A DNA stretch of 64,000 nucleotides from Allobosea sp. ASV33 (GTDB taxonomy: Bacteria > Pseudomonadota > Alphaproteobacteria > Rhizobiales > Beijerinckiaceae), in the NCBI RefSeq assembly GCF_016428755.1, contig NZ_JAELTI010000002.1, positions 1 to 64,000 on the forward strand, read 5' to 3'. Numbering within the stretch: position 1 is the stretch's first letter; each line of letters opens with the position of its first letter. Under the pieces are notes generated by a model. That model was not told where the DNA came from. It worked only from the letters and a program-made list of their open reading frames with translations, and made no database searches. The translations under genes and the position numbers were made by a program. Shown here in pieces: positions 2,506 to 51,221 of the stretch.

Positions 2506-4010
2506 ACGCGACCGCAGGCCTCGCCGTCGCCTTCGACGGCATCGTCAAGCGCTTCGGCCCGGTCGAGGTGCTGCACGGCGTCTCCTTCGACCTCGAACCC
2601 GGCAAGGTCTACGGCCTGCTCGGCGAGAACGGCGCCGGCAAGTCGACCCTGATGAAGATACTCTCCGGCTACGAGCAGCCGAGCGAAGGCCGGATTCTGA
2701 TCGACGGCGCGCCCGTCGCCTTCACCGGATCGCGCGAGGCTGAAGCCGCAGGCATCGTCCTGATCCATCAGGAGTTCAACCTCGCCGATGACCTGACCAT
2801 CGCTGGCAACATCTTCCTCGGTCATGAGCGCCGCAAGGGCTGGCTGCTCGACGAGGAGGCGATGCGCCGCGAGGCCGAGGCTGCGCTCGCCCAGGTCGGG
2901 CTGGCACGGACGCCGGATACGCCGGTGCGCCGTTTGATCGTCGCCGAAAAGCAGCTCGTCGAGATCGCCAAGGCGCTCTCGCGAAAGACCCGCCTGCTGA
3001 TCATGGACGAGCCCACCGCGACGCTGACCCCGTCCGAGGCGGGGCGCCTCTTCGCCCTGATCGAGCGGATGCGGGCGGAAGGCATCACCGTCGTCTACAT
3101 CTCGCACAAGCTCGACGAGGTCGAACGCATCACCGACGAGGTCATCGTCATGCGCGACGGCCGTTTCGTCGGCCGGGCGGCGACTGTATCGCTCACTCGC
3201 CACGCCATGGCGACGATGATGGTCGGGCGCGAGATCGCCGATCTCTTTCCCGAGAAGATCGCTGCCGATCCCACTGTCCCACCGGCGCTATCGGTCGAGA
3301 GCTTCTCGGTGCCGGGCTGGGCCAGCGACATCTCGTTTGCGGTGCGACCGGGCGAAATCCTCGGCTTTGCCGGGCTGGTCGGCGCCGGGCGGACCGAGCT
3401 TTTCGAGGGCATTCTGGGCCTCAGGTCGGGCAGCGGCATGATCCGACGCGACGGCAAGCCGATCCAGCTCAATTCGCCGCGCGACGCCACCCGCCATGGG
3501 CTCGCCTATCTGAGCGAGGATCGCAAGGGCAAGGGCCTGCATGTCGACTTCCCGCTACGGCCCAACCTCACCCTGATGGCGCTGGAGCGCTATGCGAAAC
3601 CGCTGCTCGACCATGAAGCGGAGCAGCGCGCGCTCGAAACCGCCGTCGGCGAATTCGGCATCCGCGCCGGCTCGCTCGACATGAAGGCCGCCTCGCTCTC
3701 GGGCGGCAACCAGCAGAAGCTCGCGCTCGCCAAGGTGCTGCATCCCGCGCCGCGCGTACTGGTGCTCGACGAGCCGACGCGCGGCGTCGATGTCGGCGCC
3801 AAGCGCGAGATCTACTTCCTGATCCAGAAACTCGCGGCCCAGGGGCTCGCCCTGATCGTCATCTCCTCGGAGCTGATCGAGCTGATCGGCCTCGCCCATC
3901 GCGTCGCGGTGATGCGCGAGGGCCGGCTCGTCGCGACGGTGGAAGGCAGCGAGATGACCGAAGCGACGATGATCGCCCATGCCACGGGGACCCGCCATGT
4001 CGCAGCCTGA
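2502..4010 (+). CDS. Sugar ABC transporter, duplicated ATP-binding protein (RbsA/XylG/MglA type)
   Basis: This 502-residue protein carries two ABC ATPase domains in tandem, the normal layout for ribose/xylose/galactose-type importers. The first domain has Walker A GENGAGKS near residue 42 and Walker [10 protein letters not shown]. The second has the signature [15 protein letters not shown] and Walker [15 protein letters not shown], while its Walker A is degenerate (GLVGAGRTE), as is typical of the family. The ATG overlaps the ROK stop (ATGA), and the downstream permease begins inside its 3' end, giving a translationally coupled operon. The exact sugar is unknown; the downstream dehydrogenase suggests a polyol, inositol or rare sugar. 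Confidence 0.93.
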
Positions 4011-8808: not shown

Positions 8809-9026
8809 GTCGGTTCCCTGCCCGTCTTTGTGCTGGCGGAGACTGGCCGATCAGCCGGTTCCCGCGCAAGCGGGCAACTGCGGGGCCAACCGGCAAGTTT
8901 CCTGCGGGACAAGGTTCTGCTTGGCATGTCGCTTGCCCTGTAGTTAGCTCATGAAGAAGCAGGGTCGTGCGGGGCCGCGACCCCTGCCCGCGCCGTTGGC
9001 ATCGGGCAGGTTGAGGGATTGGATCG

Positions 9027-10148
9027 GTGGCGGTCGAGGACCGGCAACAACGGGGAGTCGCGCCTGCGGCGCGACCACAGCGATATGACGCCGATCCGCA
9101 ACGGGCCGGCGCCGTTCCGGTTGGCGCGCCCGCGCCCTTCAAGAGCTTCGTTCAGCCCGCCCCGCGCCCGCCGGGCGCGACTTATGCCGCGCTCGATCTC
9201 GGCACCAATAACTGCCGCCTCCTGATTGCCCGCCCGGCCCAGCACGGCTTCCGCGTCGTCGATGCCTTCTCGCGGATCGTGCGCCTCGGCGAAGGCCTGG
9301 CCGCCAGCAGCCGCCTCGCCGATGCCGCCATGGATCGCGCCGTCGAGGCCCTGAAAATCTGCCGCGGCAAGATGGCGAATCGCGGCGTCACGCGCGCGCG
9401 CCTCGTCACGACCGAGGCCTGCCGCGCCGCCACCAATGGGCTCGACTTCATCCGGCGCGTCGCGGCCGAGGCGGAGCTGGCGCTGGAGGTCATCGACCAG
9501 CGCACCGAAGCCGCGCTCGCCGTCTCCGGCTGCGCCGCGCTGGCGGATCCGGCGGCGGAAAGCGTCATCGTCTTCGATATCGGCGGCGGCTCGACCGAGA
9601 TCATCTGGCTCGGCGGCCGCAGCGAGGCACGCGATCCTGCCGCCCGCATCCGCGAATGGGCGTCGCTGCCGATCGGCGTCGTCACCGTCGCCGAACGCTA
9701 TGGCGGCATCGAGGTCAGCCGCGAGCTGTTCGAGCGCATGGTCGAGGACTGCACGCAGGCGCTCGCGCCCTTCGCCAAGAAGGCAGCCGGTGCCAAGGAC
9801 GGCCGCAGCTTTCACCTGCTCGGCACCTCCGGCACGGTCACGACCGTCGCCGGCATCCATCTCGACCTGCCGCGCTATGACCGGCGCGAGGTCGACGGGC
9901 TGTGGATGCACCAGCGCGACATCCTCACGGTGATCGACCGCCTGATCGAGATGGACTATGCCGCCCGTGCGGCGAATGCCTGCATCGGCCGCGAGCGTGC
10001 CGATCTGGTGCTGGCCGGCTGCGCGATCTTCGAGGCGATCCGCCGCGCGTTCCCCAGCGAGCGCGTGCGCATCGCCGATCGCGGCCTGCGCGAGGGCATC
10101 CTGCTGCGCATGATGCATGAGGACCGCGCCTGGTGGCGGCGGAAATAG
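9027..10148 (+). CDS. ppx: Exopolyphosphatase / guanosine pentaphosphate phosphatase family protein (Ppx/GppA)
   Basis: Ppx/GppA enzymes hydrolyse terminal phosphates of polyphosphate or of pppGpp. The ASKHA-fold phosphate loops are clear: AALDLGTNNCRLLIA near residue 55 and the second loop VIVFDIGGGSTEIIWL. The gene starts with GTG at 9027 after a GAGGG site; the first 50 or so residues are proline/arginine-rich and poorly conserved, so a later start is possible. The 373-residue length matches short alphaproteobacterial forms that lack the C-terminal HD-like domain of E. coli Ppx. It is 10 bases upstream of rlmE and is likely co-transcribed with it, an arrangement I know from related genomes. 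Confidence 0.88.
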   Translation: MAVEDRQQRGVAPAARPQRYDADPQRAGAVPVGAPAPFKSFVQPAPRPPGATYAALDLGTNNCRLLIARPAQHGFRVVDAFSRIVRLGEGLAASSRLADAAMDRAVEALKICRGKMANRGVTRARLVTTEACRAATNGLDFIRRVAAEAELALEVIDQRTEAALAVSGCAALADPAAESVIVFDIGGGSTEIIWLGGRSEARDPAARIREWASLPIGVVTVAERYGGIEVSRELFERMVEDCTQALAPFAKKAAGAKDGRSFHLLGTSGTVTTVAGIHLDLPRYDRREVDGLWMHQRDILTVIDRLIEMDYAARAANACIGRERADLVLAGCAIFEAIRRAFPSERVRIADRGLREGILLRMMHEDRAWWRRK

Positions 10149-10158
10149 GTTCGAGACA

Positions 10159-10902
10159 ATGAGCACCGGAAAATCGGGCGGCAACACCGGCGGCAAGCCT
10201 GCCGGCGCGCGCGACATGCGCGTCAAGGTCAAGAAAGCCGGCAAGCTCAAGCATTCCTCGCAGCTCTGGCTCGAGCGCCAGCTCAACGACCCCTATGTGA
10301 AGCGGGCCCGGGAGATGGGCTATCGCTCGCGCGCGGCGTTCAAGCTTGAGGAGATGGACGACCGCTACAAGTTCCTGAAGACCGGCCAACGCCTGGTCGA
10401 TCTCGGTTGCGCGCCCGGCGGCTGGTGCCAGATCGCGGCCAAGCGCATCGGACTGGAGCAGGGCAAAGGCTATATCGTCGGCATCGACCTCCTGGCCGTC
10501 GATCCGATCCCCGGCGTCGACCTGATCCAGATGGATTTCATGGCCGAGGAAGCGCCCGCGCTGCTGACGCAGCGCCTCGGCGGCCGGGCCGACGGCGTGA
10601 TGTCCGACATGGCCGCCAACACCACCGGCCACAAGAAGACCGACCATCTCAAGATCATCGCGCTGGCAGAGGCGGCGATCGAATTCACGCATGATGTGCT
10701 GGCGCCGGGCGGCTTCTTCCTCGCCAAGCTTTTCCAGGGCGGCGACAGCGCCGAGCTTCTGGCTACGTTGAAGCGCGACTTCACAACCGTGCGCAACGTC
10801 AAGCCGGCGGCGAGCCGGGCGGATTCGTCGGAGCTCTACGTGCTGGCGACGGGGTATCGCCGGAAAAACATCAAAGATGGCGGGCACGACGAAGCCGAAT
10901 GA
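10159..10902 (+). CDS. rlmE: 23S rRNA (uridine-2'-O)-methyltransferase RlmE (FtsJ/RrmJ)
   Basis: RlmE methylates the 2'-hydroxyl of U2552 (E. coli numbering) in the A-loop of 23S rRNA late in large-subunit assembly. The SAM-binding motif LVDLGCAPGGWCQIAA is canonical, as are YRSRAAFKLEEMDDRY, the catalytic-region DGVMSDMAANTTGHKKTDH and GGFFLAKLFQGGD. I chose ATG 10159 because the open frame upstream overlaps ppx. Its stop overlaps the next gene (ATGA). Confidence 0.95.
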   Translation: MSTGKSGGNTGGKPAGARDMRVKVKKAGKLKHSSQLWLERQLNDPYVKRAREMGYRSRAAFKLEEMDDRYKFLKTGQRLVDLGCAPGGWCQIAAKRIGLEQGKGYIVGIDLLAVDPIPGVDLIQMDFMAEEAPALLTQRLGGRADGVMSDMAANTTGHKKTDHLKIIALAEAAIEFTHDVLAPGGFFLAKLFQGGDSAELLATLKRDFTTVRNVKPAASRADSSELYVLATGYRRKNIKDGGHDEAE

Positions 10903-37705: not shown

Positions 37706-37731
37706 GGGGCATCTACGACCTGAAGGCAGAC

Positions 37732-37808
37732 CCAAAGTTCTGTTTTGAGCAGCCAAAGTTTTGTTCCAGCGCACGCTTTGGTTGTGTGAGTGGAACCAAA
37801 GTTTGCCT
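37732..37808. repeat. Regular array of four CCAAAG units after nrdJ
   Basis: CCAAAGTTCTGTTTT (37732), CCAAAGTTTTGTTCC (37753) and CCAAAGTTTGCC (37796) are direct copies, and CTTTGG (37776-37781) is an inverted one. Successive units are spaced about 21, 23 and 20 bases, close to two helical turns each. The array begins 27 bases after the nrdJ stop and ends just before an intrinsic terminator. It could be a protein-binding array, or part of a hairpin-rich 3' end; I cannot tell which. Confidence 0.45.
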
Positions 37809-37842
37809 TATTGACGCACCAGAGCACCGCAATTGACACATC

Positions 37843-37872
37843 AGCCTGCCGCACCTCGCGGCAGGCTTTTTT
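37843..37872 (+). terminator. Intrinsic transcription terminator
   Basis: A perfect 10-bp stem AGCCTGCCGC (37843-37852) / GCGGCAGGCT (37858-37867) with loop ACCTC is followed by six Ts (37867-37872). It is oriented to end plus-strand transcription and most likely terminates the nrdJ message 140 bases after its stop. It also shields the minus-strand defence genes beyond from read-through. Confidence 0.9.
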
Positions 37873-37904
37873 CTGGCCGTCGGTGGTGAGGGTTCGGCGA
37901 GGCT

Positions 37905-38060
37905 TGCGACGATGCAGGTGTTCTCGCGACGGTGCTTGGAGCCGTTGATCGAGGCCTGCGGGTCGTGCTGGTGACGGACGCCTTGTAAAGCTCATCTGAC
38001 GCAACGCACGACGCGCTGATGGAGCTGTATGTGAACTGACGCCGCGAGTATCGCAAGGCG
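37905..38060 (+). pseudogene. Remnant of an isochorismatase-family cysteine hydrolase
   Basis: In the frame that starts at 37914 the translation reads AGVLATVLGAVDRGLRVVLV, then TDAL, a TAA stop at 37986, SSSDATHDALMELYVN, a TGA stop at 38037, and RREYR. This is the C-terminal part of the isochorismatase fold, where a conserved DAxCSSS...THDALxxLY motif is expected; the cysteine codon position has become TAA. Two in-frame stops and the missing N-terminal half show it is dead. It lies at the left edge of the defence island, so the island probably replaced the rest of the gene. Confidence 0.7.
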
Positions 38061-38073
38061 AAACCAGCAGACA

Positions 38074-40683
38074 TCAACTCTGCGGCCGTATCAGCCGTAA
38101 GCGTTCCAATTCTTCCACAATTATCGGGCCAAGATGCAACGCGCCTATGTCCGGTATGCCCGCAAGCCAGTTCCGCGCTGCGTCCGGGGTCAGGCGACTG
38201 TCCGGAAACTCCGACTGGAGCGCGGCAGCCGCAATCCGAGACAAGCCCAATTCCATGAACGACCAGCCGGACTTGGTCGAGATGCCCAACTCCAGCGCCA
38301 ACGGGAAGTCGTAGATGTTGCCGACCATCTGATCTTGATCGGCTTCGCGCAGGACCATCGCGAGAATATCGACATAAGCCTTACCGAGCTGGACAAAGCG
38401 AAACCGAACCTGATCCTCGATTAGATCGAACTCTCGTCGAATGACATCGTCGACGACAATCTTGCCCGGATCCCTCACTCTGCTGCGGGGGTTCTGCTCC
38501 CGCTTGATCCTGTTGGCCTCGCGCCTCTTGTCATTGCGCCTTTCCTGACGCCTGACCGCTTTCGCCAACAACACCGGATATGGCAGCCCCCGCATCCAAT
38601 CGAGTGCCACGCCCGAAACCAGACGAGCGAAGTTCTCGCTGCCTTGATTTACCTCCCTGTCAATCCTCGCGAAGATAGACGAGTACGACGTCGAAGCCGT
38701 CCCTTCCAGCGGATTGACAGGCATTAGCGAAAGCGCGTCGCCAGTCGTGGCCTTCTCCAGCATATCGTCATAGAGTCGGCGGAGCCCGAAGGGGTCCACG
38801 GTCCAGTTCGTTGCGAGTAGGCTCGCGGGTAACGCAACACGCTTGCTGGCTGCGATGCTCAGTCCACTTAGGGTGTCCCGTAGGCCTGCACCGAGACTGC
38901 CAAGAGTGCGGTCGATATATTCTCGAACATTGTCCTTAGCGGCTCTTGCGATCAGAAGGCCGGCAGCCGCCCTCACACGCGTGGCATCGTCGTCATTGGG
39001 CACCTCGCGCGGCATTGCCCCCCCGAGCGCCGCAACGAGGCGGTCAGGCACATCGGATGCCGTTCGAAAGAAGGCAGATTCCACCTCGTAGCCGACAAAG
39101 GCGTCGAGGGGCTTCTCCGGCCAATCCGCATAGTCAACGAGGAACACGTTGCCCACGATATCCTTGGACATTCGTCCCGCTCGTCCGGCGAAGTTCCACA
39201 GTGCGGCGGGATCAAGAGGCTTCCCAGTTCCCCTAGTAGGCGTGTCGATGAAGACGTTCTTGGCAGGAAGATTTATGCCCTCAAAGAGCGTGGTGGTGCA
39301 GGCAAGGAACTTGACGTGGCCGTCCCTGAACGCCCCCTCCACGGTCTCGCGCAGGAGCGTCGGCATCTTTCCATAGTGGAACGCCACACCCTTCCGGATC
39401 ATTCCCGCGAGGGTATAGTCGGCATGGATATGCTGTTTCACGAAATCTGCGATGTCGACCAAGGCCGGGTTCGGGTCGTCCACCCTTCCGTGCGTTAGTT
39501 GCCTGGCGACCTTCTCCGCGTCGGTCGGGCCAGTAGCGTAGACGAGCGAGCCGCCCTCCAATCCGAGCTCCAACGCTGCGGCCGCAAGACGGCTCTCTGG
39601 TACGTCGAACCCACGCTCGCTCTTCAGATTGCCCAGAGGACGCGGTCCTTCCGGAGTTAGCAAATCTAGAATGAGCAAATTCGAAGCTTCGGCCTTCCTG
39701 ACCTGGATCCTGTTTTGGATGACGGACGGAAGCTCAGAGCGCGCCACGTTCATATCGGATACACCGATCGTAGGCCCAATTGCCTCGAAGCCCCTTGCGC
39801 CGGGTGCCAGCAAGATAAGGCGAGTGGCGGCATGCCTGCGAACCGCCTGCTCGATAGCGTCCTGAAGAATCATACCACGAGACCCGTCGGACAGATTCTG
39901 CGCCTCATCCACGACGATGAGGTCGAACGTGATGGAGGACACCGCGAGGAGGACTTGCAGGCGCTCTTGCGTGAGTACGAAGACCTGTCTGGCTGGCGCG
40001 GAGGCGTCGACCGTCGGCACCGTAGAGACCCTGACTGCTTGCCCTTCGCCTAGGCGTTTCTGAATCTTGGCGCTGACCTCGGATAGCAACGCACGGGTCG
40101 GAGCGACATAGACGGCACAAAACGAATCGGCCTTCTCGATCCGTCGGCACAGATGCTCGATGACCAGAAACGACTTGCCAGCGGAGGTTGGCGCCGACAC
40201 GGCAATCGCTTGGGCCCCGGGCAGTTCGTCCCACGTGTCCTTCTGGAAGTCCGTCAGCGGCAACCAATCGGATCCGACCCGGACGCTGTTCATCTCACGG
40301 GAAAGCGTTCGTCGAAGTGCGTCAAGGAACGACGATCCGGTTTCGGGCCCGGGCCGGGCGACGCGATCCAGCGCCGGGAAGTTGCCGAGATCTGTGAGGA
40401 TTCGGCGCCCACGTTCGTAGGCGCCATCGTTATCGGCGGCGACGATTAGAGCATTCAAGGCTATGGACTGGGCCATTCGTCGATAGCCGAGATGTTCCGT
40501 CTGCACGAACACCCCGGCACAGTAGAGGAGCTTGTGCAGCTCCTCGTCAGAGGGGGGCTCCGACGCCCGCTCGAGCCCGGCGGCAATCGACTGCACGGCT
40601 CCGGAGCGCTCCAAGCGCCCAAGGATGTCTGAGAACTCTTGGTGGCCTGCCATGCGGATCGAGAGGTCCAATGCGAAGCTCAT
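38074..40683 (-). CDS. hamB: Hachiman anti-phage system helicase HamB
   Basis: This 869-residue superfamily 2 helicase has a Q-motif-like LTDFQ near residue 143, Walker A SAPTSAGKSF (163-172), motif Ia YVAPTRALL, motif II VVDEAQN (DEAQ 259-262), motif V TTTLFEGINLPA (463-474) and motif VI FAGRAGR (498-504). A long N-terminal helical region and a C-terminal half of about 350 residues without known domain match Hachiman HamB. In Hachiman the helicase is thought to guard DNA and license the partner nuclease HamA when damaged or phage DNA is sensed. The ATG is 2 bases after the hamA stop, so the genes are coupled. G+C is lower than in flanking core genes, a sign of transfer. Confidence 0.85.
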   Translation of the reverse strand: MSFALDLSIRMAGHQEFSDILGRLERSGAVQSIAAGLERASEPPSDEELHKLLYCAGVFVQTEHLGYRRMAQSIALNALIVAADNDGAYERGRRILTDLGNFPALDRVARPGPETGSSFLDALRRTLSREMNSVRVGSDWLPLTDFQKDTWDELPGAQAIAVSAPTSAGKSFLVIEHLCRRIEKADSFCAVYVAPTRALLSEVSAKIQKRLGEGQAVRVSTVPTVDASAPARQVFVLTQERLQVLLAVSSITFDLIVVDEAQNLSDGSRGMILQDAIEQAVRRHAATRLILLAPGARGFEAIGPTIGVSDMNVARSELPSVIQNRIQVRKAEASNLLILDLLTPEGPRPLGNLKSERGFDVPESRLAAAALELGLEGGSLVYATGPTDAEKVARQLTHGRVDDPNPALVDIADFVKQHIHADYTLAGMIRKGVAFHYGKMPTLLRETVEGAFRDGHVKFLACTTTLFEGINLPAKNVFIDTPTRGTGKPLDPAALWNFAGRAGRMSKDIVGNVFLVDYADWPEKPLDAFVGYEVESAFFRTASDVPDRLVAALGGAMPREVPNDDDATRVRAAAGLLIARAAKDNVREYIDRTLGSLGAGLRDTLSGLSIAASKRVALPASLLATNWTVDPFGLRRLYDDMLEKATTGDALSLMPVNPLEGTASTSYSSIFARIDREVNQGSENFARLVSGVALDWMRGLPYPVLLAKAVRRQERRNDKRREANRIKREQNPRSRVRDPGKIVVDDVIRREFDLIEDQVRFRFVQLGKAYVDILAMVLREADQDQMVGNIYDFPLALELGISTKSGWSFMELGLSRIAAAALQSEFPDSRLTPDAARNWLAGIPDIGALHLGPIIVEELERLRLIRPQS

Positions 40684-40685
40684 GC

Positions 40686-41759
40686 TCAGTCCTCGCTCCC
40701 GGTCTCGTCGTCACCGATATCGATGTCATCACCGTCCAGTGGCAGATCCCGCTCCGTCACACCCATTGCCCCGTAAAATGCCTTGCGGAGAGCCCGCACG
40801 TCGGGAACCGCCACGAAGAGGACAATGGCCTTCGCCGGATCCGCGCTATGCTTCAATAGCTGCTTTCTCGCGACCATACGGAGGGCGCCGTGGTCGGCGG
40901 AGTACCGTTCGGCGAAATCGCGCTCGTGAATATCCGCGGATTGGTCATCTCGTATAGGCAGGCGCTGGCCGAAGTGGCCCGGCTCCGAATAGCAGATGAC
41001 CCCAACGAATCTTTCCCGCCGAGAGAGTTTGGGGTGGCCGATGATGTCGAAGTGATCGAGGGCAAGTTGCCTTGCCTCTCCTTCAAGCGCGTCTAGGTTA
41101 CCGAGATCGGCAACGATCTCATACTCCCGAAGATATTGACGGCGGTCTGACAGAAACTCGGCAGCGGATTCCGCATAGGAAGCGACACCGCGACGCCCGT
41201 CTCCGGAAAGCTTCGATTCTAGGAAATAAACGGTCAGCGAGCCGTTCTCGTAGAGAGCGTGGATGCCATCCAGACCGTGGATGGGCATGTTGGCGGCCGT
41301 CTTGAGTGACATCTTGCTCGCCACCTGCGCAGCTTTCAGATGCTCCTGCACCAGGCTGTAGGCCAACACCTCGCCAAGCTCGCTGGCGCGGCTCGGATGC
41401 CGGGCATTGAAGTCTATGAAAAGGCTTTTCACCGCCGCGTGATAGTTCGCGACCGCAGTCATATCGCCCGCCTCGATTTCGTGGCGGAACTTCTCCTGCT
41501 TTCGCCTCGGGAGGGCGTAGAACATGCATTCTCGCCACAGGAATTCAGCGAGGTCGACGACCATCGGCTTGTCCTCGGCGAATCGGACGTGCATCAAGCC
41601 AGTGCGCGGCCCTTCCCACTCCTCATCGTAGACAGCGCGAACACAGCAATTCACGACACTGTCGATCTTGGATGGGTTTAGAAGCGTCGCAAGGGCGCGG
41701 GCGAACGCCTCACCGTCCATTATTTCGCCGTCGTGACCATCAGCGCTTCCGTCCGACAT
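40686..41759 (-). CDS. hamA: Hachiman anti-phage system nuclease HamA (DUF1837)
   Basis: This protein of about 357 residues carries the DUF1837 domain. The key block is ASELGEVLAYSLVQEHLKAA, then SKMSLKTAANMPIHGLDGIH and VYFLESKLSG. Residues E130 (LGE), D164 (HGLDG) and E181-x-K183 (ESK) line up as a PD-(D/E)xK-type nuclease site. The family's N-terminal part includes HVRFAEDKPMVVDLAEFLWRE. The reading frame is open upstream into the spacer, but ATG 41759 (MSDGSADGHDGEIMDGEAF) is the first sensible start; 41720 is an alternative. It ends in an acidic tail (DDIDIGDDETGSED) and is followed 2 bases later by the helicase gene. HamA with HamB forms the complete two-gene Hachiman system. Confidence 0.85.
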   Translation of the reverse strand: MSDGSADGHDGEIMDGEAFARALATLLNPSKIDSVVNCCVRAVYDEEWEGPRTGLMHVRFAEDKPMVVDLAEFLWRECMFYALPRRKQEKFRHEIEAGDMTAVANYHAAVKSLFIDFNARHPSRASELGEVLAYSLVQEHLKAAQVASKMSLKTAANMPIHGLDGIHALYENGSLTVYFLESKLSGDGRRGVASYAESAAEFLSDRRQYLREYEIVADLGNLDALEGEARQLALDHFDIIGHPKLSRRERFVGVICYSEPGHFGQRLPIRDDQSADIHERDFAERYSADHGALRMVARKQLLKHSADPAKAIVLFVAVPDVRALRKAFYGAMGVTERDLPLDGDDIDIGDDETGSED

Positions 41760-42108
41760 CCTTGGCTCACAAAAAGGAGCTCGGACGGCGGAACGCGCGC
41801 GTATCAGGGCGAAGCCATCTGAGAGGTTGGGGTGAGAGCATGGACCAAGCTGCGTGGACGAATTCGAATAGAGCTTACAGTCACTGGATTCGCAACCTGG
41901 GAGCGAGTCGCCGCTCGTGGGCGCTCTGAACTTGTTTGGTTTGAGACGAGAGCGATGCGGAAGCCGAGATCGCGCGCGTGCTTGATGAACGCAAGCCGCT
42001 CCAGATGCGCCGACGCGATGTTCCAGGACAGGAGGGATATTCCACACCGCGTCCGCTCGGACACGATCACCACGACTGCCTTTATCGGGCTAAGGAGGGT
42101 TGGACCGA
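41760..42108. other. 349-base spacer between the Gabija-like and Hachiman gene pairs
   Basis: It probably holds the promoter of the hamA-hamB pair. A minus-strand open frame of 89 codons (42073 to 41804) has a GTG start without ribosome site and an atypical, Ser/Arg/Pro-rich second half, so I do not call it. No clear terminator follows the helicase gene. Confidence 0.45.
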
Positions 42109-44037
42109 TCAGCCTGCCCTGACTTCCCGTACGCCGGCCTTATCGAGCAGCGCGAATATTTCACTGATCTTTGTGTTCCGATCCGAGCCGCATCGCGTCA
42201 TCACCAAGCTCTCCCTCGCGCGCGAGGCTGCCACGAAGAACACTGAGTGCCCCTCGCCGGGATCCTTGTCGAAACTCCACCACTCGGTGTCGTTCAGCCC
42301 GAGCAGAAACACCTGATCGTATTCCAGCCCCTTGCTCTTCGTGATCGTCATCAACGGTGTCTGGCCCTCCCCGCGGAAGGTCCGGATCGTCCCGGCCCAA
42401 GACCCGGCCGCGGAGCATTCGACAAGGAAGTCCCGGGTGGCATCCCGCACGCGCCGGAAGAAATCCGCCGTTCCATATTGCGGGGCGACGCCACGAAGCC
42501 GTTCCAAACCGAGGAACGATTCGACGTTCGCCAACGCACCGCGAACGTTGTCAGGCGAAGGCGCTGCGTTCGCGGCAAGTCTATGATCTCGATGGAAGCG
42601 ATCCAGACGCTCTGCCAGCTCGTTGGCGATGGCATCAGTCTCCTCGAAGGACAGGTTCTCAAGGGCAGCGATATGATCCATGGCGATCGTCCACCGAGCG
42701 CCGCCGTGCCGGTGCATCAGTAGCTCCAACATGTCCGCGACGATCCGTGAATAAGGCTCGGCCATCAGATCTTGGATCGAGGCGCCGCCGACGTCGCGGT
42801 CCTCGTTCCTCAACGCGAGCCCCATCGCTTCGAACTTGGGCCGCACGCGCTGTTCCCAATCGACAGCCTTCTGCCGAACGAGCAGCCCGATCGAGCGCGG
42901 ATCGGTGCCGGCAGCGATCGCCTGCGCCACGCGATCCGCAACGGCCTGCGCCTCCTTATCGGCGTCGTCGGCGACGAGAATCGAGCAAATCCGGTCAGGC
43001 GACATGTCCGGGGCCGGTCGGGCCACGATGAAGTCGGGCTCGTCGGGCGCTAGGTTCGCCTTCAGTGTGTTCAGGATGGCGACGATACGCTCGTTGCTCC
43101 TGTAGTTCCGGGTCAGACTCATTCGCCCGGACGCTCCTCGATCGGCGAGGAAGTCAGCTTGGAAAGCGTCGAAGACGTCCTTGCGCGCACCTGCCCATCC
43201 CATGATCCGCTGCTTGTCGTCGCCGACCGCCGTGAGGCTGGCGGACCCGCCCGCAAAAATGGATTCGATCAACCCGTATTGGGTCGACGTCGTGTCCTGG
43301 AACTCGTCGAGGAATACGTGGCCGTAGGTAGCGCGGATCGCGGCCCTGATGCGAGGATTGGCGTTGATGATGGCCTGGGCCATGCGGCCGATCATCGGAA
43401 ACCCCAATAAGGGATTTCCGCTTGTCAAGGTCGCTCGGAGCTGAACCAGTTGCAGGAACGCCGCGTGGCTCTCGATCGAAAGTGGATGCAGGCATAACGC
43501 CTGTACCGAACGAGTGAAGTCGTCCAGGCCGACGCTGTGGATCTTGGCGGCGACCGGTTTCTTGCCGATGATTGTCTTGGCCCAATGCGCGGGATGTCCC
43601 GGCTCATCCAATCCGTTGACCACGAAACGCTGGAGTTCGTTCAACGAGGCCCGGCTCGCGAAACCCGCGATTCCGTAGCTGCCGCCGAGCGCCAAATGTG
43701 ACGGAAGCGCCGCGGAGAAGCGATCTAGAAGCTGCTTGGCGAATGCGTCGAACGTCATGGAATCCAATGCACCGGCGAGAAGCCTGCCGCATCGCCGTTC
43801 CACCCGATCGCGCAAGTTCGAGGCCGCGTCCCGCTTGAAGCTGATAGCGAGTATGCGTCGCGGATGAAGGCAGCCTCCGGTTTGGAGCAGGAAGGCCGCC
43901 CGCTGCCCGAGAAGCTCGGTCTTGCCTGTGCCGGGGCCGGCGACGACCAGCGCGCTGCCCCGGGCACGGATCGCAGCCTCGGCTGCCGGCTCCATGGCCG
44001 GCACGCCGATAGGCCTCCATTTGTCGGCCTCGATCAT
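42109..44037 (-). CDS. UvrD/Rep-like superfamily 1A helicase, Gabija GajB-like
   Basis: This 642-residue protein has all SF1A motifs: Walker A VVAGPGTGKTELL (residues 32-44), motif Ia LAISFKRDAASNL, motif II VFLDEFQDTT (DEFQD 244-248), motif III AVGDDKQRIMGWAGA, motif IV LTRNYRSNERI, motif V MTITKSKGLEYDQVFLLG and motif VI FFVAASRARESLVMT. The ATG overlaps the stop of the OLD-family nuclease gene by 4 bases. An OLD nuclease followed by a UvrD-like helicase is the Gabija arrangement, in which the helicase-like partner senses or processes DNA ends. At 642 residues it is longer than the GajB I know (about 500), so I call it Gabija-like. Confidence 0.82.
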   Translation of the reverse strand: MIEADKWRPIGVPAMEPAAEAAIRARGSALVVAGPGTGKTELLGQRAAFLLQTGGCLHPRRILAISFKRDAASNLRDRVERRCGRLLAGALDSMTFDAFAKQLLDRFSAALPSHLALGGSYGIAGFASRASLNELQRFVVNGLDEPGHPAHWAKTIIGKKPVAAKIHSVGLDDFTRSVQALCLHPLSIESHAAFLQLVQLRATLTSGNPLLGFPMIGRMAQAIINANPRIRAAIRATYGHVFLDEFQDTTSTQYGLIESIFAGGSASLTAVGDDKQRIMGWAGARKDVFDAFQADFLADRGASGRMSLTRNYRSNERIVAILNTLKANLAPDEPDFIVARPAPDMSPDRICSILVADDADKEAQAVADRVAQAIAAGTDPRSIGLLVRQKAVDWEQRVRPKFEAMGLALRNEDRDVGGASIQDLMAEPYSRIVADMLELLMHRHGGARWTIAMDHIAALENLSFEETDAIANELAERLDRFHRDHRLAANAAPSPDNVRGALANVESFLGLERLRGVAPQYGTADFFRRVRDATRDFLVECSAAGSWAGTIRTFRGEGQTPLMTITKSKGLEYDQVFLLGLNDTEWWSFDKDPGEGHSVFFVAASRARESLVMTRCGSDRNTKISEIFALLDKAGVREVRAG

Positions 44038-46091
44038 GCTGCGGGCATCTCAAGTGATCTAGCGACGTGCTCGATCAAGCGCTCCAGAACTTCGGGGCAA
44101 TCCCGACGCAACGTTCTAGGTTCCAACCTCGACAGCGCGGCCAGATGGGTCGCCGGCTTCCCTCGGGATCCGAGAAAGAGATAGGCGTACCAAGGAAAGA
44201 GCTCTAACTCGGGCAGGCCGGTGTAGGCGGACACCCCATAACCGTCATCTCCGAGGCACCGTTCAGCGGCAGATTGCTGCCGCCGAGGATCGCTCGGCTT
44301 CTGAGGCCCCGTCGCCCCCTCCGGCAAGGTCTTGTATGCCTCGGGGAATGCGGACAGCATCAGCATGTCGAGGTCCAGTGGTCCGGACATAAAGATGCCT
44401 TGGCTTTCGAAGGCCTCGCTCCAGAAATTGATATCTTCGATATCCGCCGGCTCCTCGGAGGAGGACGAAAGCACTTGTTCTGCGCGCGCGATGGCTTTGG
44501 CGGCGTCTGCCCGTTCGCTTCTCGTCAGCCGGCGCCCCGATTGTTGAAGCGCCTCGGCGGCAACCTTGAATTGCCGATAGTCGCCCGAGCTGCGGCCCAT
44601 ATCCAAGTCCATGAGCGTGGTCTGAGGGATGCCCAACTGCTCCACCAGACGCCAAAAGTGATGGACGTGACGACCGCCGATCGGAACGATCGCGACGAAT
44701 GACCGGTCGATCGGGACGTCCAATGCCTCCGCGATCCGAGGGATCACGATCTCTTCGGAGGGGCCCTCCCCGAAAATGGCGTGCCGAGCGAAGTAGATCT
44801 CCGGATGAGCCCGCACGGCCTCGCGCACGAACTTGGCCGCGTCCACATCATCTGTTGGAAGCGCCAGCTTGGAGACGACAGAGGTCCCGGTCCGACTTGT
44901 CCGGCGGACGTGGCGGATCGCGGTCGGTTCAATCCGGCCGACGATCGCTGGGGCATGACTCGTCAGCACGCCCTGGACGCGAGCGGTCTTCACCAATCCT
45001 TCGAGCTGAGTGAGCAACCGAGAAAGGAAGTAAGGGGAAAGGTGATTTTCGGGCTCCTCGAAGGCGAAGATCGTCAAAGCTGGGGCGCGCGCGAAGTCCG
45101 GCTGGAAGGGTGGCGTTAGCCCCTTCCGCACGTCGTTTTCTAGGGCGAGCTTGAGATCGAGCAGCGCCTTCACGAGTGCGAAATGGAATAGCGACCTCTG
45201 CCCGTCACTGAGATCCTCGACCGACATCGTTCGGCCTGTGGCGGAAGGATCCAATAGGATCGCGGCACTTCGTACGATCTGCTGGAGATCGGGAGCAAGG
45301 ACCGAAAGCCGCGCAGTAGTTCCAGTCTCGCCGGTGTTGAGCTCTGACCAGCAAGCGTTGATCGCAGCGTTAACTCGGGTCAGGGCGCCTTCCCCGTCCA
45401 ACTCTCGGGATGCCTTGTCAATAAGCGCGCCGATCTCCTCCTTCTTCTCCCATTGGATGGCCTTCATGAGACTTCGTCCCAGGCTACGGACCGTGAGATG
45501 GGTCAAGGCGGTGACGTCGCGGGAAGCGGGGATGTACCGCACGATCACGTGTCCGCGCTCCGGAGACGTCATGCGCTTCTTCAACAGCGGATCGGCGTCG
45601 CCGAAAGGCACGTCGCCGCTGGCATGTATCCAATACAGCGTCTCCTCAACGACGCCGTCCAACGTGCCGGCCAATTGCCAAGTCGCTTCCAGTCGGACGC
45701 GCGCGAAGGGATGCCCCCCTTCGCTATCGACGATCATGTGGCGAAAGGCCGGAGGTATGGTCTTCTCGGCCTCGCCGCCCTCGACGTCGAGTTCAGGAAA
45801 CCTGAAGATGGCTTCGATGAAGAGGCGGCGTTCCGGGCGGCTATCCAGCCGCTCAGTCGGCGGCACGAAGAAGTCGCTCGGCTGGACGCTCCTCTCGTCG
45901 CGTGTCTCCCCGAAAAGCCGGAGCAACGCCTGGATAAGTGAACTCTTGCCCGCACCGTTCCGCCCGATGAAGACGCTGGTCTCGGCCTCCAAGGGCACTT
46001 CGACAGGAACTGGCCCCAGTTCGTCCTCAACCAGTAGATTGCCCGAGGCGAAGCTGCGGAAATTCCAGAGCTTCAAGGATTCGATGTGCAC
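44034..46091 (-). CDS. OLD-family ATP-dependent nuclease, Gabija GajA-like
   Basis: This 685-residue protein joins an ABC-type ATPase and a TOPRIM nuclease. It starts LKLWNFRSFASGNLLVED, as RecF/OLD proteins do, with Walker A FIGRNGAGKSS (41-51), signature LSDGQRSLFHFAL (294-306), Walker B IFAFEEPENHLSP (341-353) and the switch LTSHAP (376-381). The TOPRIM part has AIFGEGPSEEIVIPRIAEAL (acidic E442/E447) and TTLMDLDMGRSSGD (DLD 495-497). With the overlapping UvrD-like gene it forms a Gabija-like pair; GajA cleaves phage DNA when nucleotides run low. A C-terminal extension of about 150 residues makes it longer than typical GajA (about 580). Confidence 0.82.
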   Translation of the reverse strand: MHIESLKLWNFRSFASGNLLVEDELGPVPVEVPLEAETSVFIGRNGAGKSSLIQALLRLFGETRDERSVQPSDFFVPPTERLDSRPERRLFIEAIFRFPELDVEGGEAEKTIPPAFRHMIVDSEGGHPFARVRLEATWQLAGTLDGVVEETLYWIHASGDVPFGDADPLLKKRMTSPERGHVIVRYIPASRDVTALTHLTVRSLGRSLMKAIQWEKKEEIGALIDKASRELDGEGALTRVNAAINACWSELNTGETGTTARLSVLAPDLQQIVRSAAILLDPSATGRTMSVEDLSDGQRSLFHFALVKALLDLKLALENDVRKGLTPPFQPDFARAPALTIFAFEEPENHLSPYFLSRLLTQLEGLVKTARVQGVLTSHAPAIVGRIEPTAIRHVRRTSRTGTSVVSKLALPTDDVDAAKFVREAVRAHPEIYFARHAIFGEGPSEEIVIPRIAEALDVPIDRSFVAIVPIGGRHVHHFWRLVEQLGIPQTTLMDLDMGRSSGDYRQFKVAAEALQQSGRRLTRSERADAAKAIARAEQVLSSSSEEPADIEDINFWSEAFESQGIFMSGPLDLDMLMLSAFPEAYKTLPEGATGPQKPSDPRRQQSAAERCLGDDGYGVSAYTGLPELELFPWYAYLFLGSRGKPATHLAALSRLEPRTLRRDCPEVLERLIEHVARSLEMPAA

Positions 46092-46309: not shown

Positions 46310-47050
46310 TCAGCTCCTTGAGGCAATGAAAGCGAGCAAGACTACGATCGCCGGCAGGCACCACGAAACGATCGAGACGAGGCGGGCCAGGATGACCATC
46401 GAAGGACTTGACCCGGCCGTCACTGCCGCGACGTCGCCCCCCGCGGGGGGCGACGTCGCGGCGTGACCGGTGACGATGGCCGGGCGGTCCCTCCAGGTGA
46501 TCGACGTGGTCTTTCCTTGCGTGGCCCCCCCACCTCCGTTCCGATCGGGAGTGAGCTTCAGCGCAGGCCTGCGCTGGTGAAAGAATGGCGTGCGCTTGCA
46601 CCAGAGAGGGGCGACGACGGTCAGATCGATCTCGCGCGCCTGTCCCGCGTCGTAATCGAATTCGAGGCGCTTCCAGACGTCGCCCGGCACGCGGACATGG
46701 ACGGCCCACCTGTCTTCGTCATCGAGTTCGCCGTCCGCGAGAGAGGCGCCGATGTGGCTGTGCCAATCGAGGTCCGTCCGGTCTCCGGGAGCCGCTTGGA
46801 TGATGACCTCGATGCGCTCGACCGTGTGCGTCTGTCCGACCAGGCCGAGACTGCCCTCGATCGCGCCGGTCCCGAAGAGACGACGATCTTCCAGCCTTTT
46901 CTCGTCCAGTATGTGGACAGTGTGACCCTTCCGGAGGTCGCGCGCCGTCAGTCGCATGTGCTCCTGGTCGTCGCGCTCCAAGCCCTGGTCCTGATCATCG
47001 ATAAAGATCCTGCCGTCCTTGATCTCGACGGCGATGCTTTCATTGAGCAT
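46310..47050 (-). CDS. Tail-anchored protein of unknown function upstream of the OLD nuclease
   Basis: The gene encodes 246 residues behind an excellent Shine-Dalgarno sequence (GGGGAGGGGGAA just before the ATG on the minus strand). The first 160 residues are acidic and look beta-rich (for example IKDGRIFIDDQDQGLERDD, RVPGDVWKRLEFDYDAGQ). A low-complexity linker follows (TGHAATSPPAGGDVAAVTAG), and the last 27 residues form one membrane helix (LARLVSIVSWCLPAIVVLLA, then FIASRS), so it is probably anchored in the inner membrane facing the cytoplasm. I do not recognise a family. It is on the same strand and 218 bases upstream of the OLD gene, so it may be an extra component of that defence unit. 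Its linker is encoded by a perfect 38-bp palindrome. Confidence 0.65.
   Translation of the reverse strand: MLNESIAVEIKDGRIFIDDQDQGLERDDQEHMRLTARDLRKGHTVHILDEKRLEDRRLFGTGAIEGSLGLVGQTHTVERIEVIIQAAPGDRTDLDWHSHIGASLADGELDDEDRWAVHVRVPGDVWKRLEFDYDAGQAREIDLTVVAPLWCKRTPFFHQRRPALKLTPDRNGGGGATQGKTTSITWRDRPAIVTGHAATSPPAGGDVAAVTAGSSPSMVILARLVSIVSWCLPAIVVLLAFIASRS
46425..46462. repeat. Perfect 38-bp GC-rich palindrome inside a coding region
   Basis: The left arm 46425-46443 and right arm 46444-46462 are exact 19-base complements with no spacer; the centre reads CCCCCCGCGGGGGG and both arms contain GACGTC. Beyond one unpaired T, GTCAC (46419-46423) and GTGAC (46463-46467) extend the pairing. It lies inside the reading frame of the tail-anchored protein, in the part encoding the Gly/Ala/Pro-rich linker. 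There is no T-run, so it is not an intrinsic terminator. Confidence 0.8.
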
Positions 47051-48028: not shown

Positions 48029-49042
48029 TCAGTCGACCAGCTTCAGCCGCTTGAGACCGGCTGCCACCGTCTCGATGCCATCGATGGTACGGATCGTCGG
48101 GTTCATCGCCTGGGCGCTGAGCTCGATGAAGCGCTTGTTCTTGACGGCATCGAGCTTACCCACGACCGCATCCTTCTCCATGAAGTCGATCTTCACCTTG
48201 GGGTCGTCGGCGGGGAATTTGCGGCGGTCCATGGTGCCGACGATGATGGCGGTGGGATTATGTGAAGCGATCGATTCCCAGCTCACGGCCGGCCATTCTT
48301 CCTCGGTCTGGATCGGGTTCTTCGCACCAAGCACCTGCGTGATGTAGCCGGGCGCGCCGTTCTTCCCGGCCATCCAGGCGTCCCCATTGACGTTGGACGA
48401 TGAGAACCAGAACACCAGCGAGACAGTCGCGGCTTTGCCACCGGCAACCGACGCGATCGCCTTGGCTTCGCGCTGCTTCAGTTCCGCGACGAAGGCCTCT
48501 CCGCGATCCTGCACATCGAAGATCCGGGCCAGCTCGCCGATCTCCTGATAGATCGAATCCATCGAGAACAGCTTAGAGCGCGAGCCGTCTCGCATCGAGT
48601 TGTCCTTGGCGGCGCAATCTCCCGGGGAGACATAGGTCGCGACGCCGAGCTCCTCGAACTGCTCGCGCTTGCCGACCACGCCGTTGGGGCCGACATCGAA
48701 GACGAACTGCGCGGCAACGAGGTCGGGATCGTTCTTCACGACGCCCTCGAAGCTCGGCTGGTTGTTGGAAATACGCGGCACCTTCTCGTTGGCCGCCTTG
48801 AGGTTCTCCAGCACCGGGCCGACCCAGACCGCAGTCCCGACCATCTTGTCGGCGACGCCCAGCGACAGGAGGATCTCTGTCGAGTTCTGGCCGATCGAGA
48901 CCGCCCGCTCGGGCGCCTTGTCGAAGGTGATCTTGCGACCGCAGTTCTCCAGCGTCAGCGGGTACTGCGTCTTGCCAGCAGCGACCGCCCCCGAAGTGCC
49001 GAGTGCAAGCACGCTTATGGCGAAAGCGAAGGAGAATTTCAT
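48029..49042 (-). CDS. FecB/BtuF-type ABC periplasmic binding protein (third of three)
   Basis: This 337-residue protein has a signal peptide (FAFAISVLALGTSGAVAAG). The mature part begins YPLTLENCGRKITFDKAPER, the usual start of siderophore/cobalamin-type Peripla_BP_2 proteins, with ISNNQPSFEGVVKNDPDLV and AVSWESIASHNPTAIIVG further on. It is likely to bind an Fe-chelate, haem or corrinoid in the periplasm. It sits 17 bases after another binding-protein gene in a tight run of three, all downstream of a cobalamin riboswitch, with no permease or ATPase gene in the run. The ligand is therefore inferred to be B12-related, but this is not proven. Confidence 0.82.
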   Translation of the reverse strand: MKFSFAFAISVLALGTSGAVAAGKTQYPLTLENCGRKITFDKAPERAVSIGQNSTEILLSLGVADKMVGTAVWVGPVLENLKAANEKVPRISNNQPSFEGVVKNDPDLVAAQFVFDVGPNGVVGKREQFEELGVATYVSPGDCAAKDNSMRDGSRSKLFSMDSIYQEIGELARIFDVQDRGEAFVAELKQREAKAIASVAGGKAATVSLVFWFSSSNVNGDAWMAGKNGAPGYITQVLGAKNPIQTEEEWPAVSWESIASHNPTAIIVGTMDRRKFPADDPKVKIDFMEKDAVVGKLDAVKNKRFIELSAQAMNPTIRTIDGIETVAAGLKRLKLVD

Positions 49043-49059
49043 CGGGAATTCCTTTCCGT

Positions 49060-50031
49060 TCAGGAGCGCGGCGTCGCGGCGAGGATCGTGTCGAGCCGCG
49101 CGAGGATGAAGGGGATGTTGACCGGGTTAGGCGCGACCAGCGCGTCGTAGAGATGCGTGTCGACGATATGGGCGCGGCCGCGCGCCACGACCGGAAGCGT
49201 CCCGGCGCCCGGCAAAGGTGCCAGCAATTCGCGCACCGAAGCCGCCTTGCCGATCGGCGCCAGCAGGGCGATGTCGGCGCTGCCGATGGAACGCAGATCG
49301 GCGAGCGGGCGCATGAAGGAGCCGTTGCAGTCAAAGCCATCGGCCCTGTCAACGAGCGGCTTCAAGCCGATGCGGCGGAAGAGGTCGAGCGCGAGCGCCG
49401 TCTCGTCGACGATCGGATGGAAGGAGTTCGCCGTCACCTGGGCATAGGCGATGGTCCGGCCGCGCCGGGCGGCGTGGCGCTCGGCGAAGGCGGCGATGGC
49501 CGCATCCGCGTTCGCGACAAGCCTATCCGCTGGCTCGGGTCTACCGACGAGGCGGGCGATCAGCCGGGTCAGGTCGGCATACGGATCGCGCAGGTTCCGG
49601 CGAACGCTGACCAGCGTCGGTGCGATCTCGGCCAGTCGATCATAGTGATCGCCATAGCTGTGATAGGCCGTCGCGGCGAGGATCAGGTCGGGCTCCAGCT
49701 CGCGCAGCAGATCGAGATCGACACGCCCCGCCGGAACGCTCGCGATCTCGGGCGAAAGCGCCGGCTGGACCCAGGGGAAGTTGTGGCCGTCAAGGCCCGC
49801 GCCGTAGCGCATCGCACCAACCAGAGGTGCGTCGAGGGCACGCGCAATGGCGAGGTCGCTATAGCCAGCCGCCACGATGCGTTTCGGCGCTCCCGGGAGG
49901 GTGAGTTCACCATGGCTATGCCGGACGCGGATCGCTCCGTCATCGCCATGAGCGATACCGGTGCGGACACCGAGAAGCGCGCAGCCCACTCCCATCAGAA
50001 CGGCCCTACGCGAGATCGTTGCCGGGATCAT
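49060..50031 (-). CDS. FecB/BtuF-type ABC periplasmic binding protein (second of three)
   Basis: This 323-residue protein starts with a twin-arginine-like leader (ATISRRAVLMGVGCALLG). It shows GELTLPGAPKRIVAAGYSDL, DLDLLRELEPDLILAATAYH, YDRLAEIAPTLVSVRRNLRD and the closing DIALLAPIGKAAS of Peripla_BP_2 proteins. Sequence similarity to its two neighbours is low, so the three are not recent duplicates and may bind different forms of a ligand. It lies 23 bases after the first binding-protein gene and is evidently co-transcribed with it. Confidence 0.82.
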   Translation of the reverse strand: MIPATISRRAVLMGVGCALLGVRTGIAHGDDGAIRVRHSHGELTLPGAPKRIVAAGYSDLAIARALDAPLVGAMRYGAGLDGHNFPWVQPALSPEIASVPAGRVDLDLLRELEPDLILAATAYHSYGDHYDRLAEIAPTLVSVRRNLRDPYADLTRLIARLVGRPEPADRLVANADAAIAAFAERHAARRGRTIAYAQVTANSFHPIVDETALALDLFRRIGLKPLVDRADGFDCNGSFMRPLADLRSIGSADIALLAPIGKAASVRELLAPLPGAGTLPVVARGRAHIVDTHLYDALVAPNPVNIPFILARLDTILAATPRS

Positions 50032-50054
50032 GATGCCCCTCCGGTCCGTGGCGC

Positions 50055-51053
50055 TCAGGCCTTCTTCGGAAAGTTGCTCTCGACCATGTCGAGCAGGCGC
50101 AGCGCCGCGAGGTAGTCCGGCCGCACGGCGGATTCGTCGAGCTCCCAGCGTCGGTAGCTGATGACGGCGTCGAGCTGGCGGAAGCCCGGATCGCAGCAGA
50201 GCTGGCCCATGCTGACCGGACCGTTCGAGACCATGATGAGATTGGGCGCGGTGAAAACATCGAGCACCGAGGCGATCGGCACGATGACCCGTCCGTCCGC
50301 ATCTGGCTTGCCGCCCTGCACCTTGGCTGCGGCGTCGAAAACTTTGAAGCCGAGGCCCGCCAGAGTCCGGGCGAGCCCGCTATCGGCGGCGATGGCAAAG
50401 GGATCCTCATGAATGCCCGCAGCATTCGCCTGAAGAAGCGCGATCTCACCTTCCGGCAAGGCGACCTTGCCAGCGACCTCCTTGGCGCGCGTCTCGAAGG
50501 CCGCGACCAGTCCGCCCACCTTGTCGGTCCTTCCGGTCGCCTCAGCGATCAGCGCCAACTCCTCGCGCCAGCCCGGCAAGGTTGCGGGAACGACGAGCAC
50601 CGGCGCAATTGCCGTAAGCTCCTTCAGCACCGCCCGGCTCAGCACGCCGCCGGGATTGCGCCCGCCGGCGATGATCAGGTCGGGAGAAGCCGCCTTGACC
50701 GCATCGAGATCGACCGCATCGGGGCGCTGCGGCAGTGCGGTGCTCTTCTGCGCCGTCGCCTGCCGATTCCACAAAGGCGGGAAGCCGGTGCGGCGGTTGA
50801 TCCGACCGTCGGGGAAGCGCACATCCGCCACCGCCACCGGCGCGCCCAGCGCGAAGAGATATCCCGCGAGGCCCGCATCGAGCACCACGATCCGCTTCGG
50901 TTCGGCCGGAAGCCGGACTGGCCCCGCCTCGCCGGTCACGGTGCGGGTCTGTGCCGACGCCGGCCGCACGGATGCGAGGCTCGCCGCCCCGGCCAGGAGC
51001 GCCGCGATGGTCCGGCGCGACGGATGATATTGTCCCTTGATGCCAATCGACAT
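50055..51053 (-). CDS. FecB/BtuF-type ABC periplasmic binding protein (first of three)
   Basis: This protein has about 332 residues. ATG 51053 (MSIGIKGQYHPSRRTIAALL) has a GGGAG site, unlike the in-frame ATG at 51155, and gives a twin-arginine-like signal ending PASA-QTRTV. The mature protein has GPVRLPAEPKRIVVLDAGLA, DAVKAASPDLIIAGGRNPGG and ELTAIAPVLVVPATLPGWRE, typical of iron-siderophore/cobalamin binding proteins. It is the first gene after the cobalamin riboswitch. The leader between riboswitch and start contains GGATGC-GAT-GCATCC just before the ribosome site (51071-51085), a candidate expression-platform hairpin. Confidence 0.83.
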   Translation of the reverse strand: MSIGIKGQYHPSRRTIAALLAGAASLASVRPASAQTRTVTGEAGPVRLPAEPKRIVVLDAGLAGYLFALGAPVAVADVRFPDGRINRRTGFPPLWNRQATAQKSTALPQRPDAVDLDAVKAASPDLIIAGGRNPGGVLSRAVLKELTAIAPVLVVPATLPGWREELALIAEATGRTDKVGGLVAAFETRAKEVAGKVALPEGEIALLQANAAGIHEDPFAIAADSGLARTLAGLGFKVFDAAAKVQGGKPDADGRVIVPIASVLDVFTAPNLIMVSNGPVSMGQLCCDPGFRQLDAVISYRRWELDESAVRPDYLAALRLLDMVESNFPKKA

Positions 51054-51221
51054 CGCAAGCTCCCACGGTTCACACCCGGATGCATCGCATCCGGTGCCGG
51101 TGCCGTGAGCTTCGGGAGAGATCTCCGTCGGTCGCGGGCGCGCGGCAACATTCATCGAATGTCACCGTCACGGAGACGACCGCGCCCTGGCACACCCCGT
51201 GCCGCGAGCTCAGGTGACTGG

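What the first reader, a model, noticed from the sequence alone, without database searches (positions are those of the whole stretch)
38074..46091. Hachiman and Gabija-like systems side by side on one strand
Four genes encode two nuclease-helicase pairs: HamA (DUF1837, with E130, D164 and ESK 181-183) with HamB (SF2 helicase), and an OLD-family ATPase/TOPRIM protein with a UvrD-like SF1 helicase overlapping it by 4 bases. The motifs are all intact. The shared logic (a DNA-sensing helicase licensing a nuclease) and the immediate adjacency raise the possibility of cooperation or of a composite module that travels as a unit.
Basis: partly seen in the sequence, partly recalled or inferred. Interest (0 to 1): 0.85.

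Follow-up and report, generated by a model that had tools for sequence, protein, structure and literature searches.

The report
Hachiman and Gabija as island neighbours
A bacterial genome carries two well-known, apparently intact two-gene anti-virus systems side by side in foreign-looking DNA, and comparison with relatives gives no sign that the two travel as one unit.

Summary
The minus strand carries gajA (44034-46091), gajB (42109-44037, 4-base overlap), hamA (start most likely 41759) and hamB (38074-40683). PADLOC places all four strongly (3e-205, 5e-179, 3e-102, 7e-285); catalytic residues are present and conserved.

The suggested composite module that travels as a unit is not supported. 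The six closest HamAB relatives found (HamB 76-83% identical) show no Gabija in the held flanks; the closest, same genus, has DRT5 upstream of hamA instead. Outside the window, 1 of 29 Hachiman-side and 1 of 12 Gabija-side neighbourhoods hold both, and it is the same locus: a Sinorhizobium meliloti plasmid with GajA 34% identical and opposite orientation. In three paired genome samples (297, 67, 385) only this genome had a hit for both, though distant Gabija types would be missed.

The block has low G+C and begins beside nrdJ, where the 16 same-genus flanks compared lack it. Best reading: two standard systems stacked in a defence island. Functional cooperation was not testable.

The parts
44034..46091 (-). 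gajA: OLD-family (class 2) ATPase/TOPRIM nuclease, 685 aa, GTG start
   Evidence: PADLOC PDLC00090 2.9e-205; Pfam PF20469 and PF13175; E442, G473, D495, D497 align with B. cereus GajA E379, G409, D432, D434 (residues named in PMC10781630, passages)
42109..44037 (-). gajB: UvrD-like SF1 helicase, 642 aa, 4-base overlap with gajA
   Evidence: PADLOC PDLC00103 5.3e-179; Pfam PF00580, PF13361; GPGTGKT Walker A and DEFQD box read in the translation
40686..41759 (-). hamA: DUF1837/HamA nuclease, 357 aa from the ATG at 41759 (longest ORF runs to 42047)
   Evidence: PADLOC PDLC00172 3.1e-102; Pfam PF08878 3.2e-29; E130, D164, E181 and K183 invariant in 14 sequences
38074..40683 (-). hamB: SF2 Ski2-like helicase, 869 aa, 2 bases after hamA
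   Evidence: PADLOC PDLC00187 7.2e-285 over residues 1-866; Pfam PF00270, PF00271
41760..42108 (-). 349-base spacer between gajB and hamA; separates the two gene pairs; no sigma-70-consensus promoter or intrinsic terminator found
37706..38073 (.). left junction: DNA homology to 16 same-genus genomes ends between 37683 and 37869

Best explanation
Two independent, standard anti-phage systems, a Gabija pair (gajA-gajB) and a type I Hachiman pair (hamA-hamB), lie next to each other in a horizontally acquired stretch beside the housekeeping gene nrdJ. Inferred from the characterised families: HamB scans DNA while holding the HamA nuclease off and releases it when it meets damaged or 3'-single-stranded DNA; the GajA-GajB complex acts on invading linear DNA, the helicase and nucleotide levels controlling the GajA TOPRIM nuclease. 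Each pair is expected to work alone; together they would give layered protection. Shown here: gene identity, order, intact motifs, foreign composition, and no conserved association in the loci examined. Inferred: activity, triggers, and independence of function.
For: Family matches over nearly full length and conserved catalytic residues. GC3 0.70-0.71 (hamAB) and 0.73-0.77 (gajAB) against 0.92 for nrdJ. HamAB without Gabija: the six relatives with HamB 76-83% identical (L110, L121, L016, L018, L017, L122) have no GajA or GajB profile hit in the held flanks, and among PADLOC families matched by 56 flanking ORFs of these six no GajA or GajB is in the 25 of 74 shown (down to 1e-24). In L110 (same genus, 83%) a DRT5 gene (PDLC02181 8e-191) lies 300 bases upstream of hamA on the same strand. 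Neighbours of other Hachiman loci include Zorya, SIR2-HerA and methyltransferase models. 1 of 29 Hachiman-side and 1 of 12 Gabija-side neighbourhoods outside the window hold both. Hits for both only in this genome: order HamB 6 of 297, GajA 5 of 297; genus 3 of 67 and 2 of 67; class HamA 13 of 385, GajA 7 of 385. Plasmids: HamB relatives in 28 records, GajA relatives in 60, of 72,556; 2 shared, 1 adjacent. Precedent: an E. coli ICE with one dedicated position that can hold CBASS, Gabija, Hachiman, Lamassu or retrons (PMC10121019, passages).
Against: A second adjacency (S. meliloti plasmid L013, 150 bases apart) was among only three HamB plasmid hits whose surroundings I fetched (3 of 28), so adjacency may be less rare than 1 of 29 suggests. 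Genomes held are one per species, so strain-level spread of the block would be missed. The searches and profiles reach relatives of this GajA; other Gabija types could be missed, and only three first-look candidates per genome were scored. Some flanks are short (L017 2.3 kb left of hamA, L121 about 0.8 kb right of hamB; L084, L087, L093, L098, L099, L128 at contig ends). No terminator was found between gajB and hamA, so read-through transcription is possible.
Confidence: 0.88

Rival explanations
1. Composite module: the two nuclease-helicase pairs are co-selected and co-regulated and cooperate, for example one exposing DNA ends or single strands that trigger the other.
For: Same strand, 349-base spacer without a detected terminator; a second Hachiman-Gabija adjacency on an S. 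meliloti plasmid.
Against: The six closest HamAB relatives found show no Gabija in held flanks and one has DRT5 in its place; orientation differs in the second case; GajA of the two cases is 34% identical while HamB is 53%; no hit for both beyond this genome in three paired samples.
Confidence: 0.05
2. Recent co-transfer: the two pairs arrived together in one event, without functional coupling, and the four-gene block may be found in near relatives not held here. This is compatible with the best explanation.
For: Both pairs have lowered G+C and GC3 and lie in one stretch with only a 349-base spacer between them.
Against: Not seen in the 66 other same-genus genomes; GC3 differs somewhat between the pairs (0.70-0.71 against 0.73-0.77).
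Confidence: 0.3
3. One or both systems are decayed and inactive.
For: Another same-genus genome (G706) holds a broken hamB remnant, so decay happens.
Against: All four window frames are open over nearly the full profile length and catalytic residues are conserved.
Confidence: 0.07

Closest known systems
Hachiman (HamAB) of E. coli ECOR31 (PMC12278908)
   Same: Two genes: DUF1837/HamA with a D-E(X)K nuclease motif and an SF2 Ski2-like helicase
   Different: Distant in sequence: phmmer of HamB reaches PDB HamB 8vx9 only over residues 404-514; HamA finds no PDB HamA chain by single sequence, and its profile only the AbpA/HamA-type chain 9wh1 at E 0.12
PADLOC models HamA1 PDLC00172 and HamB1 PDLC00187
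   Same: Strong match, HamB over 1-866, HamA over profile 7-322 of 326
   Different: None noted
Gabija (GajAB) of B. cereus VD045; class 2 OLD nuclease with UvrD-like helicase
   Same: gajA next to gajB; ABC ATPase plus TOPRIM with E, G and DxD; UvrD-like helicase
   Different: GajA is about 107 residues longer (685 against 578 in chain 8jq9_B) and distant: a profile of 9 GajA reaches 8jq9 at 2e-15, a single-sequence search at 1e-4 does not list it
S. meliloti USDA1157 plasmid accessoryA, NZ_CP021796 (L013)
   Same: gajAB and hamAB immediately adjacent
   Different: The pairs are divergent; GajA 34% and HamB 53% identical; a PDC-S73-type gene lies beyond

Membership tests
Hachiman | HamA (DUF1837, PF08878) protein | tested here: met
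   102.8 bits against cut-off 25; PADLOC 3.1e-102
Hachiman | D-E(X)K nuclease motif of HamA (PMC12278908, passages) | tested here: met
   D164, E181, K183 invariant in 14 aligned HamA
Hachiman | SF2 Ski2-like helicase HamB directly beside hamA | tested here: met
   PADLOC 7.2e-285, 2-base gap
Hachiman | DNA-damage-triggered nuclease activity and phage protection | not testable with these tools
   Needs experiment
Hachiman type II | HamC (DUF3223) beside hamAB (PMC8565338, passages) | tested here: not met
   No DUF3223 among the ten proteins scanned against Pfam; the pair is type I, which lacks it
Gabija (class 2 OLD) | ABC ATPase plus TOPRIM with E, G and DxD (PMC10781630, passages) | tested here: met
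   E442, G473, D495, D497 align with E379, G409, D432, D434 of B. cereus GajA and are invariant in 9 GajA
[quoted passage not shown]
   PADLOC 5.3e-179; DEFQD read
Gabija (class 2 OLD) | 4:4 GajA-GajB complex and phage protection | not testable with these tools
   No complex prediction on hand; needs experiment
Composite Hachiman-Gabija module | Conserved four-gene order in relatives | tested here: not met
   1 of 29 Hachiman-side and 1 of 12 Gabija-side loci outside the window hold both, in another orientation
Composite Hachiman-Gabija module | Functional synergy | not testable with these tools
   Needs phage challenge

The most novel reading that the evidence does not exclude
The two DNA-state-sensing nuclease-helicase systems form a cooperating pair, Gabija cutting phage DNA and so producing the damaged DNA that fires Hachiman, an association that has arisen at least twice (here and on an S. 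meliloti plasmid).
Probability: 0.05. Interest if true: 0.6.

Novelty: new member of a known kind. Interest (0 to 1): 0.2.

Why it matters
It adds intact members of two known defence families and an example of varying partners beside Hachiman (Gabija here, DRT5 in the closest relative, a PDC-S73-type gene, a weakly matched caspase-like gene). It also shows that adjacency of two systems with similar logic should not be read as cooperation without checking relatives.

Tried and rejected
Composite module: rejected as a travelling unit on the neighbourhood census. A role for the 246-aa ORF upstream of gajA (46310-47050): no match in PADLOC, Pfam, NCBIfam, PHROGs or plasmids and none in the loci held other than the window's own, so not counted as part. 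Viral-contig scans with single proteins, which find close relatives only, found none for GajA or HamB; the phage collection gave one partial HamB and four GajA relatives at 1e-20. A HamA structure prediction with four sequences gave mean pLDDT 35 and was not used. The promoter/terminator scan of the spacer found nothing. Trees: GajA has long branches and does not resolve the window's place. tblastn alone missed some distant Hachiman genes, so profiles were built; there, 20 of the 29 Hachiman-side loci had both Ham hits (hamB split in L015, L081, L082) and nine lacked one or both by my profiles (L083, L084, L086, L087, L088, L091, L092, L096, L111), most of them chosen by Pfam HamA hits. The profiles include sequences of loci they were run on, which lifts those scores but not the absence of the partner. 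The PADLOC check of 81 further flanking ORFs of other Hachiman loci (of 98 listed; I left out 17 hamB ORFs) shows 25 of 67 families, down to 4e-75, none GajA or GajB; weaker ones are not visible. Of 28 plasmid records with HamB only three were fetched, and of 60 with GajA only the one shared; the rest were compared by record positions alone. L113 (60-80 kb of the contig) was fetched and not analysed.

Full report
Observation. The minus strand carries four neighbouring genes between 38074 and 46091. PADLOC places them as HamB, HamA, GajB and GajA with E-values from 3e-102 to 7e-285, and Pfam agrees. The gajA and gajB frames overlap by 4 bases. HamA's E130, D164, E181 and K183 are invariant in 14 aligned sequences, matching the D-E(X)K motif described for HamA (PMC12278908, passages). 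GajA's E442, G473, D495 and D497 align with the active-site residues of B. cereus GajA (PMC10781630, passages) and are invariant in 9 aligned GajA. GajB has a GPGTGKT Walker A and a DEFQD box. No HamC (DUF3223) was among the ten proteins scanned, so the Hachiman pair is of type I in the PADLOC scheme (PMC8565338, passages).

Surroundings. To the left is nrdJ (B12-dependent ribonucleotide reductase, + strand); 29 of 31 genomes searched, the window's own included, have a match. Flanks of 16 same-genus genomes were fetched (1.2 to 14 kb downstream of nrdJ). DNA homology to the window ends between 37683 and 37869 in all 16, apart from one short unrelated match. At the protein level only short matches (60-102 aa) to the window at 50-62 kb appear, in L068, L070, L071, L073 and L077, none at 37.7-50 kb. 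The 16 flanks are also mostly unlike each other: 11 of 120 pairs share a translated match of 60 aa or more, one of them with both sides within the first 4 kb (with a 150-aa threshold 4 pairs). To the right are a 246-aa ORF without known relatives, a GNAT acetyltransferase and siderophore-binding-type proteins. The four genes have G+C 0.595-0.632 and GC3 0.70-0.77 against 0.657 and 0.92 for nrdJ. This fits horizontal acquisition at a variable junction. Of 75 ORFs from 15 of the 16 flanks (of 96 listed; I left out 21 small ones), some match defence models at 1e-15: mad3 (3 ORFs) and, in single ORFs, oligonucleotide cyclases, ThsB-like, DpdJ-like, PDC-M50B, Mokosh-type, mad8 and TniQ models; the Pfam families shown (25 of 69) are mostly ordinary ones such as transporters, regulators and enzymes.

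Does the four-gene block recur? HamB: 6 of 297 genomes of the order; 3 of 67 of the genus, one of these broken; 7 of 397 of the family at 1e-60 (G712, found, is not among the seven and may not have been drawn). GajA: 5 of 297 and 2 of 67. Class sample of 385: HamA 13, GajA model PDLC00090 7. In the three paired samples the only genome with a hit for both is the window's own. These GajA counts are of relatives of this subgroup, and only three first-look candidates per genome were scored, so other Gabija types are not counted; the literature puts Gabija near 15% of genomes (PMC10568477, passages).

Neighbourhoods. Outside the window I examined 29 loci with a HamA or HamB match and 12 with GajA (L013 counts in both) using profiles built from the loci: 20 of the 29 show both Ham genes; 1 of 29 has Gabija; 1 of 12 Gabija loci has Hachiman. 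The six closest HamAB (L110 83%, L121 78%, L016 and L018 77%, L017 and L122 76%) have none, and a PADLOC scan of 56 of their flanking ORFs lists no GajA or GajB among the 25 of 74 families shown, down to 1e-24. L110, from the same genus, has DRT5 (8e-191) 300 bases upstream of hamA on the same strand and an LmuA-like gene nearby (3e-20); L017 has a weakly caspase-like gene downstream (4e-12) and a TraG-type gene upstream; L013 has a PDC-S73-type gene. The same kind of scan of 81 flanking ORFs of the other Hachiman loci shows Zorya, SIR2-HerA and TmtA models among others, and no GajA or GajB among the 25 of 67 families shown, down to 4e-75. Among plasmids, 28 records hold a HamB relative (1e-30) and 60 a GajA relative (1e-10); two hold both, one adjacent (NZ_CP021796) and one about 23.5 kb apart (NZ_CP045378).

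The second adjacency. On the S. meliloti plasmid the two pairs are divergent, 150 bases apart. HamB is 53% and GajA 34% identical to the window's, whereas GajA relatives of 40-41% over the alignment occur in loci without Hachiman (L097, L112, L098; L098 is cut by a contig end). The best full-length GajA identity met in the searches was 43% (G218). The GajA tree has long branches and does not resolve the window's place; the HamB tree groups the window with L110, L016, L017 and L018 at 94/98, just under the tool's star. The two adjacencies therefore most likely arose separately; this is inference.

Mechanism. From work on the families: HamB surveys DNA and restrains HamA until it meets DNA damage (PMC12278908, abstract start in the listing and passages); Gabija forms a GajA-GajB complex (PMC10781630, passages), GajA being inhibited by high ATP (PMC10568477, passages), and in Pseudomonas it acts on linear DNA not engaged by RecBCD (PMC12407980, preprint, passages). 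The window proteins should work likewise; this is inference. Papers seen on combinations: Gabija and Hachiman each with CRISPR-Cas in S. thermophilus, with synergy at some phage doses, and a Hachiman plus type II RM island (PMC12322248, passages); Hachiman with CBASS III in P. aeruginosa, marginally additive with one phage (PMC12735699, passages). In the listings and passages seen I met no test of Gabija together with Hachiman; the searches were made, over open-licence PMC papers only. Precedent for exchangeable systems at one position, Gabija and Hachiman among them: PMC10121019 (passages).

Conclusion. Real, intact-looking, and ordinary: two known systems in one island.

Noticed in passing
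window 37706 onward; L065-L080: The DNA directly after nrdJ is mostly unlike among the window and 16 same-genus genomes; some flanks carry defence-like genes. Possible variable insertion spot.
   Followed up: partly
window 46310-47050, minus strand: 246-aa ORF upstream of gajA with a hydrophobic C-terminal end, no match in PADLOC, Pfam, NCBIfam, PHROGs or plasmids.
   Followed up: partly
L110:5815-7407 (+) and 2494-3780 (-): DRT5 reverse transcriptase directly upstream of the closest hamAB, and an LmuA-like gene nearby: another partner beside Hachiman.
   Followed up: partly
L111 about 8978-10335: Broken hamB remnant in another same-genus genome, G706.
   Followed up: no
L017:6305-8233 (-): Weakly caspase-like protein next to hamAB, with a TraG-type conjugation gene on the other side.
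   Followed up: no
window 48029-51155, minus strand: Three periplasmic siderophore-binding-type proteins in a row.
   Followed up: no
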